Origin: Siniperca chuatsi
Taxonomy: Eukaryota > Chordata > Actinopteri > Centrarchiformes > Sinipercidae
Assembly (NCBI RefSeq): GCF_020085105.1
Contig: NC_058065.1
Span: 3,102,218-3,166,217, forward strand
Direction: 5' to 3'
Length of the DNA stretch: 64,000 nt
Shown in pieces: positions 8,426 through 46,000 of the stretch (the first letter of the stretch is position 1; every line of letters begins with the position of its first letter). Both the position numbers and the translations under genes were made by a program. The notes beneath the pieces were generated by a model. That model had not been told where the DNA came from. It searched no databases and saw only the letters and a program-made list of their open reading frames with translations.

Positions 8426-25885
<17,460 letters not shown>

Positions 25886-26735: not shown

Positions 26736-27938
26736 GATCCACTTTAAAATACAAGTTCACAGAAAAACAGCAGATAATTATTTCTGAGGTGGAGAGAAAA
26801 ACGACCCACATACTGTACGTGCTCCAGACAGACCTCCCCAAGAGAAACAAATCCAGTCCGAATGGGGCTTAAATCAGGTTAAGACTGTCACTTTGCTTGT
26901 GTACATATATCTTTTTTTATTAAATGTGAACTATAAACGCCCCAGTAATCCCAACTGTAAAACAGTTAATGTGATTCAGCATGCCTTCTTCTTTGTAGCA
27001 GAAATACTATGAAAACACACACGAATTCATAGAAAACTGTATTAAAAGTATGATTTTTTTTATGTTTCTGGAAAAATGTAAACATCTTTGCATTTCCTGT
27101 AGCCTGCCTGAGCTTTTTATTTAAGTAACAGAATCATTAGCTGTTCATAAAGGTACAGTGGGACAGCTAAGAGCAATTAAACCACTTGATGACTTGATGA
27201 GTTGTGGTTATTTTTGAAGAAACTTGCTGATGATGATTATTATATATGAAGTAGAAATCAAATGCGCTGTTACTGGAGATCATCCCATGAAGGTCAGGAG
27301 CTCCTGTTAGTTGTTAGTGTCGGCAACCACATGAAGCGCCGTTTAAAAAATATAAAAAGACAAGGAGATATGCTGTAGGACTCAGTATGCGCTGAACATT
27401 ACAACCAGAAAATACACTAAAAAATAACGACCATAATTCACATTAACTGTTACGTTACAATTAACTTTAATGAACTGAAAACACTGAAAGTTCAAGCAAT
27501 ACAGTTCTTTATCGTCTATTTTTCTCTAAATGGGACCATAATTTACAAAATGAACATCATGCTGTATTGCAGAAGACTTGAAACTAGCGACTGAGACCAT
27601 AAAGTCATTATGAAAATGTTTACTGAGGTAATAAATCAAGTGAGAAATTGGCTCATTTTCTCATCGACTTCTATACAATCGGACTTCTTTTAGCAACCAG
27701 TGGAGTCGCCCCCCTGCTGGCCATCAGAGAGAATGCAGGTTTAAGGCGCTTCGCATTGGCTTCACTTTTCAGGCCTGGAGGCTACATCCACTTCTTTTAT
27801 GCAGTCTGTCATCCTGACTTTAGCACGTAGCTCACAAGTTGTGGGTTTAAGGCTTGTAAGTTTTAAAAACCAACATTAAGTTTGAAAATGAAGTCCGACA
27901 GCTGCACTGCTGACGTCAGACTGTAAGGTTGAGGGTTC
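26736..27938. other. Intergenic stretch, nothing recognised
   Basis: AT-rich. The short open frames lack splice context or similarity. No RNA gene was recognised. Confidence 0.5.
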
Positions 27939-28321
27939 AGAATCAGAAATACTTTATTGATCCCCGAAGGGAAACTCTTTGTTACAGCAGCTCGCCTTTA
28001 CGTCAGTGCACACAGGAGAAAGTACCAGCAAACAATATGATACACTATAAAACACTATCAAAACAGGTCAGAAAATAAATTAAGTACCAGGTGGGTATAA
28101 GTATAAGATAAACTAAGTGTCAAGTACCAAGTGGGTTTACCGGTTGATGATGATAATACAGTATAATAATACAATGTACTAATATAAGTAATAAGCAGTG
28201 GTGCATGTACTGTCGAGTTAAGTGTAGCTTATTGAGATTATTAAGATATTACACAGCAGTAATGGAGGTATATAATATCAATGTCAATGAATAGGAAAAA
28301 CTAACATGGGAAAACTAAATA
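27939..28321. mobile_element. Dispersed retroelement-like repeat, copy 2
   Basis: Nearly identical to 22427-22770 but with about 50 extra bases (gtgggtataagtataagat region) at about 28090-28130. It also lacks the short insertion seen in copy 1. Confidence 0.65.
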
Positions 28322-28794
28322 TTGCACGGGAGTAGTCGAACCTCAGTTAGTCTTTACTTTCTGGAAAACAATCTGTCAATATTGAAATGGTGTAAGAAAA
28401 AAATGTTTGCCCAGTGAGCAGTAGTGGCTCAAGCAGGTGCACATCTGACCCAAGACCAGAAGGGTAGGGGTTCAAACCTGACCTTAAAAGCCAACATGTC
28501 ATTGGATTGAAACCTTTAGTTTAACAGAGATCTTTGGAAGCAGACGCCTCGTTAGCAACTCTGAAAGAAGACAAACAAGCCGAACTTCTTACAGAGAGAT
28601 AACTCAGGAGGAGGAGCTGGTGACATTAACGCCGTCTGACCGACTCGTTGTTGGTTGGATCTGCAAACGTTATCCAATCTACCGAGTGTAACGTTCACCT
28701 GCACACATTACCTGGATGATAATCAACCAATTAACAGGGTTACAATTCATCCGGAGGGGAACGTGAATGTCTGAACCGCATTTCACCAAAAGCC

Positions 28795-28900
28795 AAAAAC
28801 ATCAACCTCATGGTGGCGCTAGAGGAGATGTCAGGGGCTCGTTTGTTCGCAGTTTCATGGAAATCTGCCTGAAAAGCTTTAAAAATGAGACTTTCTTTGT
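28795..28900. repeat. Dispersed repeat, ggtggcgctagagg family
   Basis: Shares its core and following sequence with copies at about 905, 1050, 29559 and 43850. Confidence 0.5.
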
Positions 28901-29558
28901 GTCTTGCTCAGTAGCTTCGAGCGTTAGTGGACTCCCTTAAAGAGTTCTAGGTTGTAGGTTTGATCCTCGGGTAATCTTACGAACTGTGACATCCAACACC
29001 CAGAAGAGCTTTATAGATGAGGAGCTCCAGCGGTTAGATGACTCATCAGGTGTATTGAGAACATGGGTTCGATCCCCAGGCGACTAATTTTCTTTAGAAG
29101 TCCAACACCCAAAGTTTAGTCTCAAATGCGCTCAGAGAGAAACTCTGAAGAGGGCACATATGGTGGCTCAATGTGTTCGAAGGCTCAGCAGTAGGTTGAG
29201 GTTTGATCCCCGAGTAACTCAATAACTTTTAAAGTTAAAAGATCATTTCAATGTTTCCGGTCAAGTGTCTCAGGTTGTTAGATGCTACGTCAGGTATTTT
29301 GAGGATGTGGGTTCGGTCCTCATGCTAACCTCTGAATTTTGAAGTCTTATGTCCAAAGGAAAAAGTGAAAAGCTCTAAGAAAGAAACAGGAAGTGTCTCA
29401 GATCAAATACCTCAGGGTGGAAGAAGTCTGGGTTAGACATCAGGGTTAGTGTCCACAAGGTTGGTAGTTCAACGCACTACTCTGCCACATAGTTCCTTTC
29501 CTACTTCAAACAGCGACCCAATTAGTTTTAAATAAATGTGACATGAAGAGGCGTTGCT

Positions 29559-29700
29559 GATGGTGGCGCTAGATGGCCTCTAGTCAGAGGATCAACAAAG
29601 TGATTACAGTTCATCCTGAGGGGAACATCGGGGGTTAGGTATGTCTGAACCGAACTTCACAGCAATCCATCCACTAGTTGTGGAGACATTTCACTAAAAG
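29559..29700. repeat. Dispersed repeat, ggtggcgctagagg family
   Basis: The core is followed by gttcatcctgaggggaacat, then caatccatccactagttgtg, as in the 43850 copy. It interrupts the tRNA-like array. Confidence 0.55.
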
Positions 29701-30024
29701 CCAAAGACTTTTAAAGTCCGAAACTCAGAGGAAAGACTGAAAAGCTTTTAAAAACTATTCTGTTGTTGTCTCTGGCCCACTGAATCAGTGTGTTAGAGGA
29801 CTCTTCCAAAGAGTTTGAGGTATGGGTTTGATCCTTGGATAATGGTGTGTTTTTCAAACACCAAGACGAAAGACTGAAAGGCGTACAAAACGATATGTGC
29901 AATATCTCTGGTCCAGTGGCTCAGGGTTTTAGATATCTGTACTAGATCCTCAAGCCTTTTGAAGTCAGATGTCCAAAGGAAAAAGTGAAAAGCTCTAAAA
30001 AAAAGAGGAGTGATGTGTCTCAGA

Positions 30025-30092
30025 TCTAATAGCTCAGGGTGGAAGAAGACTGCTCAGGAGTTCTCAGGTTGTGGGTTCGATCCTTATGAGGC
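30025..30092 (+). repeat. tRNA-like unit (A box tagctcagggtgg, B box gggttcgatcc)
   Basis: A box at 30030-30042, B box at 30073-30083. One of the best-preserved members of the first subfamily. Confidence 0.6.
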
Positions 30093-30274
30093 TCAGTGAA
30101 CTTTAAAGTCCAGCACCCAAAGTGAAGACTTAAGAGCACTCAGAGAGAAACTCTAAAGAGGGCTGATATGGCGGTTCAATGTGTTAGAAGCTCCTTGCTG
30201 AAGTCTGTGGATTTTGAAGTTGGATGTCCAAAGGAAAAAGTGAAAAGGTCTAAGAAAGATAATGATGTGTCTGA

Positions 30275-30342
30275 ACAAATAGCTCAGCGTGGTAGAAGAC
30301 TAATCAGGACTTCTGAGGATCTGGGTTCAAACCTCATGACGT
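30275..30342 (+). repeat. tRNA-like unit (A box tagctcagcgtgg, B box gggttcaaacc)
   Basis: A box at 30280-30292, B box at 30323-30333. About 250 bp downstream of the previous good unit. Confidence 0.55.
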
Positions 30343-30580
30343 GGCGTCTCCTGCACATTTATGGACGCCAGAGGTGCTATTATTTAATTACCCGCTGTCC
30401 AAAGCAAGGAGTGAACGGAGAAAAACTCAAAAGTCTCCAGACCATTAGCTCGGGATGATAGAGGTCTGCGTGGAGGTCTTGAGAATCTGGGTTTGGTCCC
30501 CATTTGATGATGTGTGTTTTGAAAGCTGATGTTTAAAGCAAAGACTGAAAAGCGCCAAGAAACTGGGTCCAGGTGTCTCC

Positions 30581-30650
30581 TCAGGTAGCTCGGGACGATA
30601 GAGGCCTGCTTGGCAGCTCTGAGGTTGTGGGTTCGATCCTTATCGAGGCT
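30581..30650 (+). repeat. tRNA-like unit (A box tagctcgggacga, B box gggttcgatcc)
   Basis: A box at 30586-30598, B box at 30629-30639. Nearly identical to the displaced unit at 33332-33392. Confidence 0.6.
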
Positions 30651-30721
30651 CGGTGACTTTTGAAGTCCAAAAGAGTGAAGTGAAAAGATAAAAGCGCCCG
30701 GAGAAAAGGTTCTAATGCGAA

Positions 30722-30810
30722 GGGGACGCGGTGGCGTGGAGGGTTTGTCCGTGACCATAAGGGATAAGGTGCTGGCGGTGCGGCACCTGGTTCGAATCCA
30801 ACCCGTTGCC
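30722..30810 (+). repeat. tRNA-like unit, GC-rich subfamily, class-II-like length
   Basis: A box tggcgtggaggg at 30732-30743 and B box ggttcgaatcc at 30789-30799. A short hairpin-like ggtgctggcggtgcggcacc lies just before the B box, resembling a long variable arm. Confidence 0.5.
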
Positions 30811-31049
30811 AGTTCCTGAGCATCAGTGACGTCCCTGACAGGAGGAAGGGAGTGGGGGGGGCCGTGTCTCCCCCCGGGCCCTTGGGAGAGGCAGAAGCAG
30901 GGGGTTATAGGACGGACAACAGTGACTTTTTATTGACGCCAGCACTGGGCTGTTCATTATATTCAACTTTCATATGGAGGATGTGCGTTCAATCATCTTG
31001 AGGCTCAGTGAAGATCTACAAGCGCCCACAGAGACGGCCCCGGTGCGAA

Positions 31050-31132
31050 GGGACTCTGTGGCGCAGGGGGCTCGTCCGGACCTCCAGACACCGGCGGTGC
31101 AGCGTCTCCTGGTTCGAGTCCTGGCCCTGGCC
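31050..31132 (+). repeat. tRNA-like unit, GC-rich subfamily, consensus A and B boxes
   Basis: A box tggcgcaggggg at 31059-31070 and B box ggttcgagtcc at 31111-31121 both fit the eukaryotic tRNA promoter consensus. The flank ggcacctggagaaatacg recurs after the unit at 31741-31812. Confidence 0.55.
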
Positions 31133-31740
31133 GGCACCTGGAGAAATACGAATTTACAACAGTTTTTAAAATGTTGGAAGAGTTGCAACTACTAACATAC
31201 ATATTGCATCTAACATTACACTTCAGGAAAAGAGTAACTTCATTTACTGGTTTGCACACGTGTAACCTCCCAAACGCTCATGGTGTTATCCAGGTAAGTG
31301 GCTGCAGGTGCATGACAGCTGTCAGTAGCTACACTCTGTCTTAGCTTGTGTTGACTTTCCTCTGAGGCTAAGTGTGTTAGCTTTCAAAGGCTACAGGTTC
31401 TACAAGCTAATGAAAGAACTGCACACACACATTCAAGCTCAGTTATCTCTACATTCAGATTCGCAGTTAGTTACCCAAATGTTTGCAGCATGTGCTCCCA
31501 TCCTCGTTCCCGCCAGGTAAAAGGGCCAACTGTCAAACAGGAAGTGGGAGAATCCAATTGTATTTATACAAGGGGGGACCCGGACTGTACCAAGTGGGCT
31601 AGAGTACAGGGGGGTGCGTGGTTGTTGTCAGACTCGGTACAACTGGTAGACTCGGTAGCGATAGCTGAGCTTTTCAAAGATCCTTATGAGGCTCAGTGAA
31701 TTTTAAAGTCCAGCACCCAAAGCGAGGAAATGAAAGGTCC

Positions 31741-31812
31741 CAGTGTGAAGGGGGCTCGGCCGGTTAGACACCGGCGGCGCGGCCCCTGGTTCGAGTCCTG
31801 CCCGTGGCCGGT
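31741..31812 (+). repeat. tRNA-like unit, truncated copy of 31050-31132
   Basis: B box ggttcgagtcc at 31788-31798. The A-box half is missing. Downstream about 70 bp is closely similar to 31132-31215. Confidence 0.5.
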
Positions 31813-32250
31813 ACCTGGAGAAACGTGAATTTACAACAGTTTTTAAGATGTTGGAAGCCTTACTAACTAAAATACTGCATTCAGCATTAGTAACACAGTA
31901 GCCACACAGCAGACCCTTCAGTCTTTTGTCGGTTTAGACATGTCGACCTCCCAAGTGTGTGTGCAGTCAACAACTACTGCTTTACTGATTACTTCTGATT
32001 TTTCATCCCTTTATCTCGAACAGCCACTTATCCCGTTGAGCTGCAGCTCTTGAATTAAATTAAAGCAACTTCAACAGCTGGACTTACAGAAGGTCTGGCT
32101 TGAAAACTGCCATGAAGATTAAATGTAGTAGTATGTGGTGTGGGCAGACCTGTGTTTCTCCTAATAACAATACTTACTGGCTGATGTAGTCGGGCTGTTA
32201 ATGTCAGCTATGTTTGTAAAATGTGATTATCTGAATTGTCTTGTTCGCAG

Positions 32251-32322
32251 GACCAGTTTGAGTTCGCCCTGACAGCCGTCGCTGAGGAGGTCAACGCCAT
32301 CCTCAAAGCTCTGCCCCAGTGA
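32251..32322 (+). CDS. ptprn: Isolated terminal exon encoding the IA-2/phogrin (PTPRN family) C-terminus
   Basis: The acceptor tgtcttgttcgcag precedes 72 bp in phase 0 encoding [12 protein letters not shown], then NAILKALPQ and TGA (32320-32322). To my memory this equals the C-terminal end of the receptor-type tyrosine-phosphatase-like proteins IA-2 (PTPRN) and phogrin (PTPRN2), secretory-granule membrane proteins of neuroendocrine cells. It is followed by a 3'UTR with a well-formed poly(A) signal. No other exon of that gene (catalytic-like HCSDGAGRTG, transmembrane or lumenal parts) is visible upstream on this strand. It may be a stray duplicated exon, a gene whose upstream intron spans stat1a, or an assembly join. 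I cannot choose between ptprn and ptprn2. Confidence 0.75.
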
Positions 32323-33260: not shown

Positions 33261-33392
33261 CACTGTGTTTTGAAAGCTGATGTTTAAAGCAGAGACTGAA
33301 GAGCAGCAAGAAACCGGGTCCAGGTGTCTCCTCAGGTAGCTCGGGACGATAGAGGCCTGCTGGGCAGCTCCGAGGTCGTGGGTTCAACACAC
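33261..33392 (+). repeat. Displaced tRNA-like unit with its flank
   Basis: Positions 33261-33386 closely match 30507-30634, including the leader gaaagctgatgtttaaagca. A box tagctcgggacga at 33337-33349. The copy stops inside the B box (gggttcaacac). Confidence 0.65.
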
Positions 33393-36862: not shown

Positions 36863-37016
36863 TCACAGCATCCCGTCCAGGTTCTTCTCTGCGTTCTGCT
36901 TGTCGTCGGTGGTGGTGGTTTCCTGAGGGCTGTACTGGGTGTGGTAATCGCGGAGGATGGTGACCACGTCGTGGTGGCCGAAGTGGACCGCTTCGTCCAT
37001 CGGCGTGTTCCCCCAC
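36863..37016 (-). CDS. gls: gls coding exon 18 (KGA C-terminus, stop)
   Basis: [20 protein letters not shown], then the KGA-specific tail ending [10 protein letters not shown]. Stop at 36863-36865. Confidence 0.96.
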
Positions 37017-40000
37017 CTGCAGCAGAGGGAGCGGTCAGAACATACGCTGGCAGCCATGTTGGACGTCTGCTGCAACATTAAACTATTCATATAAAACACT
37101 GAATATGACTGGAAAACCAACCCAAACCAGTAGAACTGCAACTAAAGATCATTTTTATTATTAATTAATCTGTTTTTGATTGTGTACGTTTAATATTTCA
37201 GCCTATAAAATGTCAGAAAACAGAAACACAGCCGAAGGTGACGAAGATATTTAGTAGAAAACAGAGAACAGCAGCAAATAATCAACATTTGAGAAGCTGA
37301 AACCAGAGAACATGTTTGACATTTTGATTAATGACTTTTATCAGTTATCAAAATTGTTGATTATTTCCTGCGGATCAACCTTAGCACTACGAGTTAACAC
37401 TGATGGTGCTGATATTCAGTGTTAACAGGAAAGGAAAACAAATATTGTCATTTCTGTTAACGGACAATAAGCGGATTTAGTTGAGACGTTCAAAGATTAA
37501 ACGAGGTAACTGCGGACAGCGTGAATTACTAACGTCCCCAGAACTAAACTCAACTAGTGTTTGGTTAAGTATAATCCAGTCGTGTCACACAAACAATATG
37601 AACTGATTTCCAGCCGTCAGTCAGTCCGTTTCCTGGCTGTTTAACGTGTTACCTGTCTTTGGGAACTGGGTTGACTTTACAGGCCTCCAGCAGGAAGCGA
37701 ACCACCTCAGCGTGTCCTGAAACACACACACACACACACACACATCATACATCAGCTCCGCAAACACACCGATCAACGCTGACGGCTTATCAATACATTA
37801 ACAATGACCTCCTCAGTGTTTCACCTTCAGCAGCTGCCACATGCAGGGCCGTCCTGGAGTCGTAGTCCCTCTGCTCCATGTCCATGGAGGACAACGCGAA
37901 CCTGGACGAATGACCGACAAACATTGCCTCAAGAAACTTAATATTAGTGCGATAACAAAAAATAGCTTCCTAGAATGAAGCAGAGACTTGACAGATGGAG
38001 GAAACACTCCTGATGCTAAAGGACACTGAACATGCTTTGACAAAATCGTTTTTTTGGAGTTCAGCAGACGAAAGAAAACACCAGCTGGTCCTTTTTTTAG
38101 TTTTGCAGATTTTAAAATCTGAACATTTTACCCCTTTTGAAGAAAGTAAAAACCGTAAAGAGTAAAGAGTTGGGTTACCTCCTCAGGGCGGAGACGTCTC
38201 CAGTGTAAGCAGCAAACAGCAGATTGATCACTGACTTCACCTGAAACACAACAACAAGCACGTTCGAGCCGAAGAAGAAGAAGAAGAGAGCTGATGAATT
38301 AGAAGAATCAGAAGAAGTTGTTGTTCTCTGCGTTTATGACGAAAATACAAACTCAAACAACATTTAAAGCCATAAATCTACAATTTCTCCAGCCAGATAT
38401 TTACAAAATTTAAAAAAAAATGTATTATAAACTACCAGTGAGACACATATTAAGTTTTAAATGTGACACTGAAGGACATTTTAGGAATGAGGGAATAAAA
38501 ATGAGTTCAGTTTTCGTTGGTGAGTGAACATTCAGTTATTTTCCACCAGATGGCGCCGTGGATTAAAATGCTACACAGCATCCAGGCCGCTGAGCACACA
38601 GTGGGAGGATGTGACGCAGACTGTCTGAAACATGTTTTACTGCCCGTTAAAGTGACGATTTAGACTAAAAATGAACCTCAACAAGAAGTGTAACAAGAGG
38701 AAAATAAGAGTACAGCAGGTGTGCATGTGCAGGAGGACGGACAGGAGCTGGGACTCACCCTCTGGTCTCCTCCCTCCCTGCGAGGATCCAGTTTCTTAGC
38801 AAAGTGTCTCAGGTTATCATAGTTGTGAAAGTTACAGAGGGAAACCAGGTCCTGAAAGAAGAGAACAACCTCAGCTTCACTTCGTACACAGTTACACGAA
38901 TGCACCGCGTTCACGCGGGACAACACGAGTTACTGTCGGGTCGTTCGCTGAGACCAAGCCGACACACGCACATGACTGATGCTTTGCTTTACACCATTTC
39001 CACCGAACGTAAGGTCTCCGCAGCTCGCTGAGCTCGTTCAAGAGGTCAATCAAGCAGATTAACTGTCTGGTTCATCGTCTGCCTTCAGTTACAGATAATA
39101 AAACGCTCATGTTCTATCAAAGTACTTCCTACTCCAAGCGGAAGTACTACCTACTTTATAGTGTACTTTTTATTTTAAAGTTTTAATATAATATTCTATA
39201 AATTCTTCAAATATAAACAGAAAGATTTTGTATATTTGTTTATATTTGAAGAATTTATAGATTATATTGAAACCGTAAATCAATCAACACTGCCCTGTAC
39301 AAAGCACAACTAAATACAATAAATGAAAACAGAAGAAAAACATGAAATTGTAGTACAGCATTGGTCAGTTACTGTATGATAAATAGCCCGAAATAAAATT
39401 ACAGCTGAGACAATTCGTTGACTAAAACCAATCTGCAACTGATTAATTGTCCGGGTCATTTTTAAAAGCAGGAAAACGCCAAATGTTCTCTGCTTCCAAG
39501 CCTCAAACATAAACACTCGTTATCCTTCTCAGACTTAACAGACGGAGCATCTTTGGGCTTCGACTTCTGGTCCTGAAGACGCCACCCTGGGCTCCGGGGA
39601 ACCAGTTTAGCCCCACCCTTACAGTTAGAACAAAAACGTATGGAGACGAAAGTTAAAGCGGGCGTTACCGTGCAGAACTGGATGCCTCTGACGCTGTTGC
39701 CCAGCTTGTCGAGTGGAGGAGACCAACACATGATGCCCATCACATTCGGAACAACCAGCAGAATCCCGCCAGCGACGCCGGATTTGGCCGGCAGACCGAC
39801 CTGCAACCGAAGGAGGACGTGTAAGAAGAAGTCCAACGTGCTCAATGTTCAGAGAGGAGTAAGGCGTAAAGACACTGACGTGGAAAGCGAACTGTCCGGA
39901 GAAGTCGTACATGCCGCAGGAATGCATCAGACTCAGAGTGTTTCGCACCGCCTCGGGGCTCAGCACACGCTCTCCTGTGATTGGACAGAAGCCGCCGTTG

Positions 40001-43000: not shown

Positions 43001-46000
43001 ACCGTGGCTGGCGAGTTAGTTTACTTTAAAGGTGCATTCACACTGCGAGCCGCATGATCAACAAGTCAATAGGCGTCTTAAAAGGGCCACTCCACCAGAT
43101 TTCACACGTCAAAGTCAATTTACTGGTCATGTTGAGACTACTCAGCCTGTGAAAACAGTCGCGTGTCTCCTGTAGCTTCGTCAAGTCTGAGAAAATAACC
43201 CTGATGACGTCACTGTGACGTCACCAGGGTAACCTCGGCTTGGGCTCAGAGACTACGAATTTATAACGGAAAGCCCGCGTTACAAACTGGGGGAGTCGAG
43301 TTTAAAAGAAGTGGGATTTTACAAAGCAGAGATGCTATTTGTTGCATTGTGGGAAATGTAGTTTATATGAGCTTAACACGTGTTAAGGACTAAAAGTCAG
43401 AATATTTCGACCTCTGTCGCTTCAATTTTGACAATTGTTTTCTATCTGTGTCTTGTGATTCCCACAACTATAGCGAAGTGCAATACTAACTCTTTAATCA
43501 ATAATTAGGTTTCTGCTCTTCAATTGTTTCACCACATGATCTGATCTGATTGGTTTTGTGAAATATACTGACTGGTGAGAAGATGATTTCATCCATTTAA
43601 ACTTTAATTTGTTTGTCCGTTAGATGAAACCTCTATAAACCTCTATACTACGTAACGTTTTTAAAAGTATTAAAAAACAAGACAAGAGTCTACAGCCATG
43701 CTAGCTGCTATGTGAGTCTGTACTCAGGTGCTAACATCAGCATGCTAACATGCTTGCACTGAAAATGCTAATGCTAATACTGATGGGACTGTCATTAGTT
43801 TTGCAGGTATTTGTTCATAAACCAAAGTATTGAACAAAATGAAACTTTGACCTGATGATGGCGCCAGCTGAAAAGTCAGGAAATCACCACAGTTAGTCCA
43901 ATTCATCCAGAGGGGAACATGAGTGGCTGAACTACATTTTTTTTGCCAATCCATCCAATAGTTGTTGAGATATTTCAGTCTGGACCAAAGTGGTGGACCG
44001 ACCGTCCATCCATATATCCATCGTGCTAGCATGGCTAAAAATATTAGCCATGTGTTTAAAACTATCCAAGACAAGTACACAGATGTACTTGTCTTGGACC
44101 ATTAAAGCTAGGTGATATGATTTAAATCAATATTATTATGTTAGGAAGAATATTTTCTGATATTAACATATATAATGATATGGCAAATGTACGCAAATTT
44201 ACAGATAAAACAATGAAACTGACGTTTAATGCAACAAACAACAGTACGCTCTCCTGCTACAGATTTTATCAAGACAAGGATCTAAAAACGAATAAAACAA
44301 AAACAACTATGCGTGAAATAATTAATTTTGACATAAACGTAACAGGATTTTGTCTCTAAAAGACTTGTTTGCCATGTAGCTTGCAGTGTAAATTCACATT
44401 TTGGGTTTTATCTACTACTGCGGCCGACAGACAAAAACTGATTTTCTGGCGTAGGTTGACAAGAACAAAGACTTGAGCTAAGAAGGTCGCCAGTAACTCA
44501 AATAGATGTATCTGTACTGACTGCTAAATGTAATCTAAGGATGTAAAATTAAAATTAAAAACAAAGAGATCCTTCTCCGCATAAGAATGGAGTATGATAT
44601 AAAACCAGTGTTTGAGTTGAGCCAGAGCTGTTTATAATCCAGAAGTATAAACAGTTTTGAAAAACGCAGGTGCAAAGTGTAAAAGCAACATTTAAAACAC
44701 TCAAACAGCCACGTGAAGGCTAAAAGCTTTTCACAAATCCAGACAAAAAGAGGGGGAAAAATAATTAAAAAGGAAAAATTACCAACGTCATTGACCTGTT
44801 GCAGTGGTCATAATATCCCAAAGATCCTAATGCTGTAAAATATGCAACAACACATAAAACCACACAACGAGCCTTGAACATTGCAAATGAGTGTCTCTTA
44901 GGTGTAGATCTAGATTCAGAGGGGGCGGGGGGGCATGCACAGAACCTGGTTTTATCATTCGGATCAATGAATACGATAGATTCAACCTTCCGCTACAGAA
45001 ATCTCAACAGTGATTGGTTGGGATTCAAAAAGGTTGACGGGAAAGCTGTTTTCATATCATTCAGTAATTCCCTGCTGTACTTTCTTGTTGCTGATAAATC
45101 AGATTATATTTAACCCTTTCCCTGGCCATCATTCGCATACGATCCGTATACACACAGCTGGTGTCATGTAAAATAAGAACAACAGCAGCTATAATGAGGT
45201 TTTCTTGTGTTTTAACACAAAAAGAGTTTCTCTTACAGCTGCATTATGTGCTCTAAGCCCATGTGCAGGCGATTTATCAATTAAAAGTGTCCAACGTTGA
45301 AATCTATTTGGCCAGTAAGGAATATAGCCGGTACGTTTGCAGCTAGCAAACTGTGACTGGTGGGCGGAGAAACTGTTTTATTGTGAGGTTTGGCTGCCTC
45401 TTAATATTTCCGTCTTGACAGTTAGTCTTAGTGATTGCAGATGTTTGTTTAGAGGCATATTAGAAGGATTTAAGGACGTGTTTCTGGTGAGTTATGTGGA
45501 CACAGTGTGTGTTGCTCTCCTGGTTTACGTCCTGCGACACGCACCATAAAGTATTTACACTTCTAACAATGACATAAATAAACTGACAGCTGTTTTAGTT
45601 TTGGAAAAAAAAAACATAATCAAACAGTCCACAGAGGTCTTTTTGTTTCCTAAAGAGCAAGTCATTGGTTGTTAACGGTATAACAGAATTTTATAGTTTA
45701 TTATTTTACCACAGACGGGGGTATTGTACATGAACACAACATTTAGTCTTTCACTATATTTGAATTTATCATAAATTCAGATGATGACAAGTTAATATTT
45801 TCTGTTTTTTACTCACAGAAATGTGCAAAAATGTAAAGATTTTCCCATTCAATACGTCTACATGGAAACAATCAGCACCCAAAGCAAACACTATGCACTG
45901 TGGTCAATACTGAACGGTGCTTAAAACAATCTAAAACATTTCTATTCGATGTTGTGAACGCACTGCAGAGAGAGGCAAGCAGTATCTGATGATCCCCATC

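What the first reader, a model, noticed from the sequence alone, without database searches (positions are those of the whole stretch)
28418..31812. Local array of about 16 diverged tRNA-like units with Pol III A/B-box motifs
Units with tagctcaggg / tggcgcaggg and ggttcgatcc / ggttcgagtcc, 35-55 bp apart, recur every 70-250 bp and share linker sequence (gaagtccaacacccaaag, aaaagtgaaaagctctaaga). They are too diverged and unpaired to be tRNA genes, yet the two promoter boxes are the best preserved parts. This could be a lineage-specific Pol III-transcribed cluster, a boundary/insulator array between two convergent genes, or a tRNA-derived SINE amplified in tandem.
Basis: partly seen in the sequence, partly recalled or inferred. 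Interest (0 to 1): 0.8.

Follow-up and report, generated by a model that had tools for sequence, protein, structure and literature searches.

The report
Decaying tandem array of tRNA-like repeats
In what looks like a fish chromosome, a short tRNA-like DNA unit was copied head to tail about fifteen times between two genes; it looks like a decaying local repeat, although the piece that could attract the small-RNA transcription machinery has changed less than the rest.

Summary
At 28.4-31.8 kb lie 13 tRNA-like heads of one kind (the first an outlier) and 3 of a second kind, all on the + strand. Self-comparison gives 18 direct and 0 inverted matches; 100 shuffles give none. A profile made from linkers alone finds 10 copies at E<0.02, 9 in the array and 1 at 33.27 kb. 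Spacing alternates at about 108 and 142 bp, and blocks are copied at shared offsets: local DNA duplication rather than independent SINE insertions.

None is a convincing tRNA gene. 'Both boxes best preserved' is half right: the B box is the most conserved stretch of five linker-defined units, the A box is at background. Three of 13 heads have lost the B box.

Best reading: a locally amplified, tRNA-derived (perhaps tRNA-Ala) repeat array, now mostly decaying, between convergent STAT1 and GLS, beside an orphan PTPRN last exon. Retained TFIIIC binding is not excluded. No fish genome could be searched (genome search did not complete), so copies elsewhere are untested.

The parts
28415..28490 (+). 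u1: isolated tRNA-like head without the shared linker; resembles a recalled human tRNA-Trp (unit boundaries here and below are approximate)
   Evidence: local score 47 against tRNA-Trp, next best 23; shuffling the inter-box part reaches it in 0 of 2000
28740..28845 (+). fragments of a dispersed repeat, apparently copied together with the following unit
   Evidence: 28743-28783 matches 43899-43939 and 28807-28845 matches 907-945; 28740-28786 recurs at 29604-29660 (offset 864) beside 28869/29737 (offset 868)
28902..29011 (+). u2: head and tail; linker not recognised by the profile
   Evidence: alignment; 28869-28975 is 71% identical to 29737-29843
29012..29153 (+). u3: head, TTTT and linker
   Evidence: linker-profile hit 29093-29145; 29036-29182 is 76% identical to 30044-30190
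29154..29255 (+). u4: head with shortened inter-box part
   Evidence: alignment; B box GGTTTGATCCC
29256..29397 (+). u5: head, TTTT and linker
   Evidence: linker-profile hit 29337-29387, E 2.8e-14
29398..29480 (+). u6: head with A box, B box decayed
   Evidence: alignment; 29337-29430 is 88% identical to 29957-30052
29556..29693 (+). dispersed repeat fragments inside the array
   Evidence: 29557-29693 matches 43852-43977 (68%); 29556-29573 matches 906-923; 29583-29628 matches 1073-1118
29708..29754 (+). headless linker copy
   Evidence: linker-profile hit, E 1.4e-6
29771..29906 (+). u7: head; linker only weakly recognisable
   Evidence: alignment; linker hit 29868-29883 only at E 6.3
29907..30019 (+). 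u8: head partly deleted, B box degenerate, linker intact
   Evidence: linker-profile hit 29956-30006
30020..30161 (+). u9: head and linker intact (T-run of only three T)
   Evidence: linker-profile hit 30101-30153; T-run check
30162..30269 (+). u10: B box deleted, linker intact
   Evidence: linker-profile hit 30212-30262
30270..30435 (+). u11: head followed by a sequence that interrupts the linker
   Evidence: 30212-30339 is 81% identical to 29957-30089; linker hit 30393-30415 only at E 0.33
30436..30575 (+). u12: head, TTTT and linker
   Evidence: linker-profile hit 30517-30569
30576..30721 (+). u13: head resembling a recalled tRNA-Ala, TTTT, weak linker
   Evidence: score 42.5 against tRNA-Ala, next best 30.5; inter-box shuffle p 0.001 for that one isotype; linker hit E 0.017
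30722..30818 (+). second-kind unit (u14), B box GGTTCGAATCC
   Evidence: 30774-30818 is 82% identical to 31773-31817
30978..31034 (+). partial first-kind tail before the next second-kind unit
   Evidence: 30978-31012 is 83% identical to 30066-30100
31049..31140 (+). second-kind unit (u16), B box GGTTCGAGTCC
   Evidence: 31065-31200 is 81% identical to 31749-31875
31679..31740 (+). partial first-kind tail and linker
   Evidence: 31679-31728 is 94% identical to 30079-30128; linker hit E 0.0011
31741..31817 (+). second-kind unit (u18) lacking the A-box part of u16; the only ARAGORN 'tRNA' (Ser, AGA; 31736-31810), judged spurious
   Evidence: ARAGORN; no Rfam tRNA match up to E 10
33264..33385 (+). 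u19: copy of the u12 linker + u13 head, cut inside the B box, beyond the PTPRN exon
   Evidence: 93% identical to 30513-30634 over 122 bp
32251..32322 (+). neighbour, not part of the array: orphan last coding exon of PTPRN (IA-2), 23 residues and stop
   Evidence: 23 of 23 residues identical to PDB 2i1y chain A 279-301; no other match at E<0.5 to a recalled 156-aa C-terminal probe in the window

Best explanation
A tRNA-derived, Pol III-type repeat unit (A box, B box about 44 bp further on, a T-run 12-18 bp after that, then an unrelated linker of about 55 bp; head perhaps from tRNA-Ala) came to lie in the DNA between STAT1 and GLS. It was then amplified in place by ordinary unequal recombination or similar DNA-level copying: as single units, as two-unit blocks of about 250 bp, and as larger blocks that carried a neighbouring dispersed repeat along. 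The array is now mostly inert and decaying by point mutation and deletions. Shown: same-strand, block-wise copying; shared linker; no tRNA fold; excess conservation of the B box in five units. Inferred: the tRNA source, recombination as the copying route, and present inactivity. The B-box conservation most simply reflects that the copies descend from units that were once Pol III-competent; residual TFIIIC binding is possible.
For: 18 direct and 0 inverted self-matches, none in 100 shuffles. Linker-only profile: 10 hits at E<0.02, all +, 9 in the array and 1 at 33.27 kb. Block copies at shared offsets: 28740/29604 (dispersed repeat, 864) next to 28869/29737 (868), and 29036-29182/30044-30190 (1008); identities 70-94%, so copying was staggered. 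A-start spacing 110, 142, 102, 142, then 136, 113, 142, 108, 166, 140, 146. u19 spans linker then head and is cut inside the B box, not what a Pol III transcript starting near the A box would give. Decay: no Rfam tRNA up to E 10; consensus fold of 3 pairs without compensatory change; B box gone in u6, u8, u10 of 13 heads; 7 of 14 B boxes lack the CpG, four of them as TTTG.
Against: The B box is the most conserved 10-nt stretch of the five linker-defined units with whole heads: 2 changes against 9.8 for random columns, column-permutation p 0.0003. Purely neutral decay after amplification does not predict this. Five related units are few and columns are not independent, so p is rough. The tRNA source is weak: second-kind units score no higher against the recalled tRNAs than the best of 100 shuffles. 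A dispersed SINE with the same linker cannot be excluded without the genome.
Confidence: 0.62

Rival explanations
1. Hot spot of independent insertions of one or two tRNA-derived SINE families that are dispersed genome-wide.
For: Units have a SINE-like plan (tRNA-like head, unrelated tail). Dispersed repeats do occur around and inside the array (27937-28318 against 22423-22773; 28807-28845 against 907-945). A putative tRNA-derived SINE is reported in a fish 5S rDNA spacer (PMC3464664, abstract and passages); that such SINEs are common in fish is recalled.
Against: One strand only, abutting units with alternating ~108/142 bp spacing, shared block offsets, and at the thresholds used no linker copy in the rest of the window apart from u19. 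No flanking duplications or tails seen between abutting units (by eye; no formal search).
Confidence: 0.15
2. Functional TFIIIC-binding array: B boxes recruit TFIIIC without full Pol III transcription and separate the convergent STAT1 and GLS transcription units, like extra-TFIIIC sites.
For: B box conserved more than any other stretch while the A box is at background; position between convergent genes. In mouse neurons TFIIIC binds SINEs distal to promoters and regulates gene relocation (PMC3744447, abstract).
Against: Three of 13 heads have lost the B box; 4 of 14 B boxes read TTTG in place of TTCG, which departs from the recalled consensus. No binding data or other species could be examined.
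Confidence: 0.12
3. Remnant of a tRNA gene cluster of mixed isotypes, as teleosts are known to have, its genes now pseudogenes.
For: u1 resembles tRNA-Trp and u13 tRNA-Ala, and three units are of another kind. 65% of zebrafish and 87% of stickleback tRNA genes and pseudogenes are clustered (PMC2888827, abstract).
Against: No unit reaches Rfam's tRNA model even at E 10. Seven heads share one linker. The isotype resemblance rests on recalled human tRNAs and is weak for most units: u5 22.5 against a shuffled mean of 21.2; u14, u16, u18 at or below their shuffled maxima.
Confidence: 0.1

Closest known systems
tRNA-derived SINEs
   Same: tRNA-like head with A and B boxes, tRNA-unrelated tail, no cloverleaf left
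   Different: units tandem on one strand; no target-site duplications or 3' tails seen by eye; apart from one fragment about 1.5 kb beyond the array no linker copy was found in the window; genome-wide copies untested
Teleost tRNA gene and pseudogene clusters (PMC2888827, abstract and passages)
   Same: local clusters of tRNA-like units, possibly of more than one isotype
   Different: no unit is recognised by Rfam's tRNA model; one unit family with a shared linker dominates
Transposable-element-derived tandem repeats (recalled; PMC9659126 seen only as a listing with the start of its abstract)
   Same: a mobile-element-like unit expanded head to tail with two-unit higher-order structure
   Different: short (about 3.4 kb), strongly diverged, not homogenised
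Extra-TFIIIC sites / TFIIIC-bound SINEs (PMC3744447, abstract)
   Same: B boxes without functional tRNA genes, between genes
   Different: no occupancy evidence here; several B boxes degraded

Membership tests
tRNA gene | match to the tRNA covariance model / foldable cloverleaf | tested here: not met
   no Rfam match at the gathering threshold in the window, no tRNA match up to E 10 in 27600-32300; ARAGORN unit, lacking the A-box part; consensus fold of 10 heads has 3 pairs
tRNA-derived SINE | tRNA-related head with A and B boxes | tested here: met
   A+B pairs 8 on + and 0 on - against 0.85 in shuffles; u13 head resembles a recalled tRNA-Ala; second-kind units show no tRNA resemblance beyond shuffles
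tRNA-derived SINE | dispersed copies in many genomic places | not testable with these tools
   The genome search did not complete; in the window only u19 lies outside the array
tRNA-derived SINE | target-site duplications and 3' tail at each copy | tested here: inconclusive
   none seen by eye; no formal search made
tandem (satellite-like) repeat | head-to-tail copies with a shared period | tested here: met
   18 direct, 0 inverted matches; alternating ~108/142 bp spacing; Tandem Repeats Finder does not list it
Pol III transcription unit | A box, B box and T-run terminator in order | tested here: inconclusive
   3 sets in the region at strict recalled consensus against 0.13 in shuffles; TTTT at 9 of 10 linker starts, where the profile itself begins; several units lack a part
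TFIIIC (ETC-like) site | TFIIIC occupancy | not testable with these tools
   no ChIP data available here

The most novel reading that the evidence does not exclude
The array is a TFIIIC-binding boundary made by tandem amplification of a tRNA(Ala)-like unit: selection keeps the B boxes (and not the A boxes or the RNA fold), so that a cluster of about a dozen B boxes insulates convergent STAT1 and GLS transcription in this lineage.
Probability: 0.1. Interest if true: 0.65.

Novelty: new member of a known kind. Interest (0 to 1): 0.3.

Why it matters
If inert, it is a tidy example of a tRNA-derived unit turning into a short tandem array by local duplication. If the B-box conservation proves to be selection, it would be a natural case of a B-box-only array kept between two convergent genes, in which the order of events (unit arrives, tandem growth, loss of RNA function, retention of the TFIIIC site) could be read from sequence.

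Tried and rejected
Rfam at gathering and at E<=10 on 27600-32300: no tRNA; the three weak hits (mir-1275, MIAT_exon5_2, PVT1_3) are far under their cut-offs and dismissed. ARAGORN's tRNA-Ser at 31736-31810 rejected: the unit lacks the A-box part seen in its sister at 31059. ARAGORN on the consensus of the first-kind units: nothing. Tandem Repeats Finder does not list the array.

Box conservation was measured in several ways. Over 13 units aligned from their A boxes (u19 left out): B 0.69, A 0.60, T4 0.62, between boxes 0.49, linker 0.475; those units were partly found through the boxes, so I do not lean on it. Over blastn local alignments: B 0.91 (131 of 144), A 0.82 (82 of 100), other 0.79 (966 of 1216); none of 116 shifted placements reaches the B value, 43% reach the A value; this may be inflated because several alignments end at the B box, and two of the 14 box positions were one base off. 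I rely on the linker-defined units: of 10 linker hits, u3, u5, u9, u12, u13 have whole heads; dropped were u8 and u10 (head deleted) and the headless ones at 29708, 31701 and 33268. On those five: 2 B-box changes in 10 columns; the four without u13 give the same (3 of 128 windows as low). Pairwise identity on the same five: B 0.855, A 0.667, inter-box 0.682, after 0.693. In one search the figure printed as 'A window' covers bases before the A box; one search gives the right one. CpG: 7 of 14 B boxes lack it, but the three with TTCAA may never have had it, since TTCAA occurs in real tRNAs, so only the four TTTG forms are clear decay.

Paper searches for such arrays (two returned nothing) listed nothing that, by title and start of abstract, describes this array; two searches listed only 15 of 20 and 12 of 69.
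Full report
Context. The window is vertebrate and probably a teleost (inference from gene content and recalled fish repeats; the species is not known to me). On the + strand it holds myostatin (mature domain 2273-2695: best PDB matches GDF8; Pfam TGF_beta) and STAT1 (STAT coiled-coil at 15.1-15.4 kb and STAT1_TAZ2bind at 23.5-23.9 kb; exon at 21.6-21.9 kb best matching STAT1). On the - strand at 36863-37141 is an exon matching kidney-type glutaminase (GLS; 5u0i E 3.3e-15; the top row is a designed ankyrin protein with no single stretch passing, and only 60 of 171 rows were shown). About 0.4 kb after the array, on the + strand at 32251-32322, is a lone last exon of PTPRN, 23 of 23 residues as in PDB 2i1y; a recalled 156-residue PTPRN C-terminal probe has no other match at E<0.5 in the window. 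So the array lies between convergent STAT1 and GLS, with an orphan PTPRN exon beside it.

Is the array real? Yes. Self-blastn of 27600-32300 at E<=1e-3 gives 18 direct and 0 inverted off-diagonal matches; 100 dinucleotide shuffles give none. Of 13 tiles of 4.7 kb covering 1-61100, the one with the array gives 18 direct matches, two polypyrimidine tiles 63 and 38, and the other ten 0 to 5. To avoid finding units through the boxes I built a profile from six linkers only: 10 hits at E<0.02, all on the + strand, 9 in the array and 1 at 33268-33319; the best minus-strand hit has E 1.1. B-box-like words in the region number 12 on + (shuffle mean 2.9, maximum 8 of 300) but also 8 on -, mostly the same sites read backwards. 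A+B pairs: 8 on +, 0 on - (mean 0.85, maximum 4), one of the 8 looking accidental. A+B+TTTT sets: 3 on +, 0 on - (mean 0.13, maximum 2). The whole window has 13 + and 9 - pairs and 4 + and 2 - sets.

Anatomy. A first-kind unit is a head with an A-box-like stretch (best form TAGCTCAGGG), a B box (GGTTCGATCC) usually 44 bp further on, a T-run 12-18 bp after it in u3, u5, u12 and u13, and a linker of about 55 bp. Of 13 heads, 7 (u3, u5, u8, u9, u10, u12, u13) are followed by a linker found at E<0.02; u2, u4, u6, u7 and u11 are not, or only weakly, and u1 has none. TTTT lies at the linker start in 9 of 10 linker hits against 9% of 14-mers at 24-36 kb, but the profile itself begins there. A-start distances are 487, 110, 142, 102, 142, 373, 136, 113, 142, 108, 166, 140, 146, 327: apart from breaks, some filled by dispersed repeats, a two-unit period of about 250 bp. 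The right end has three second-kind units (30.7, 31.05, 31.74 kb), each preceded by a whole or partial first-kind tail. One more copy at 33264-33385, 93% identical to 30513-30634, spans linker then head and stops inside the B box.

How it grew. Copies share offsets over several units and over non-tRNA DNA: the dispersed repeat at 28740 recurs at 29604 (offset 864) beside 28869/29737 (868), and u3 with the start of u4 recurs as u9-u10 (29036-29182 against 30044-30190, offset 1008, 76%). Identities run from 70% to 94%. I read this as block-wise local duplication over a long time, not a burst and not independent insertions (inference).

What the units came from. They are not recognisable tRNA genes: no Rfam match at gathering in the window, no tRNA match up to E 10 in 27600-32300; ARAGORN finds only a second-kind unit without its A-box part and nothing in the first-kind consensus; the consensus fold of ten heads has 3 pairs, none with compensatory change. 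Against 23 recalled human tRNAs, u13 fits Ala best (42.5; next 30.5), anticodon region included; shuffling only its inter-box part reaches that in about 0.1% of 2000 (one isotype, uncorrected). Of the five other first-kind heads put to the panel (u3, u5, u9, u11, u12), Ala is first, tied first or within 0.5 of first in all five, but u5 (22.5) is no better than the shuffled mean (21.2) and u12 (26.5) lies below its shuffled maximum (42); u2, u4, u6, u7, u8 and u10 were not tested. u1 fits Trp (47; next 23; 0 of 2000 shuffles). The second-kind units u14, u16, u18 score 31, 31.5 and 29 at best, under their shuffled maxima of 33, 34 and 34.5, so beyond the boxes they show no tRNA resemblance.

Are the boxes preserved? 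Half. In the five linker-defined units with whole heads (133 gap-free columns) the B box has 2 changes in 10 columns against 9.8 for random columns (p 0.0003 by column permutation); only 3 of 124 ten-column windows are as low, the first starting at column 54 against 56 for the B box. The A box has 11 changes in 12 columns, the same as background (11.1; p 0.57). Against strong present selection: u6, u8 and u10 of 13 heads have lost the B box, and 7 of 14 B boxes lack the CpG, four as TTTG (clear decay) and three as TTCAA (which real tRNAs also use). CpG observed/expected is 0.56 in the array and 0.62 in the window. B-box conservation could mean residual TFIIIC binding, or that copies descend from units once Pol III-competent; five related units do not settle it.

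Conclusion. Observation confirmed; interpretation partly supported. The most economical account is a locally amplified, tRNA-derived repeat array, now mostly decaying; a TFIIIC-array reading survives at low probability. Context from papers: large tRNA gene and pseudogene clusters in zebrafish and stickleback (PMC2888827, abstract and passages); a putative tRNA-derived SINE in a fish 5S rDNA spacer (PMC3464664, abstract and passages); TFIIIC binding to SINEs in mouse neurons (PMC3744447, abstract). The main gap is that no fish genome could be searched, so whether the unit is dispersed elsewhere is unknown.

Noticed in passing
32251-32322 (+): Orphan PTPRN last exon, 23 of 23 residues as in PDB 2i1y, preceded by a splice-acceptor-like CAG and followed by AATAAA motifs about 145 and 835 bp downstream, with no other PTPRN C-terminal match in the window: segmental duplication, misassembly or a gene split elsewhere.
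   Followed up: partly
12223-15216: Very long polypyrimidine (TCC-rich) tracts, about 1.7 kb and 0.75 kb, inside the STAT1 gene region.
   Followed up: no
24514-24689: Eight-copy, 98% matching 22-bp minisatellite between the STAT1 end and the array.
   Followed up: no
27937-28318 and 22423-22773: Two copies (83%) of a dispersed repeat, one just upstream of the array.
   Followed up: no
28740-28845, 29556-29693, 906-945, 1073-1118, 43852-43977: Fragments of another dispersed repeat; two lie inside the array and appear to have been duplicated with it.
   Followed up: partly
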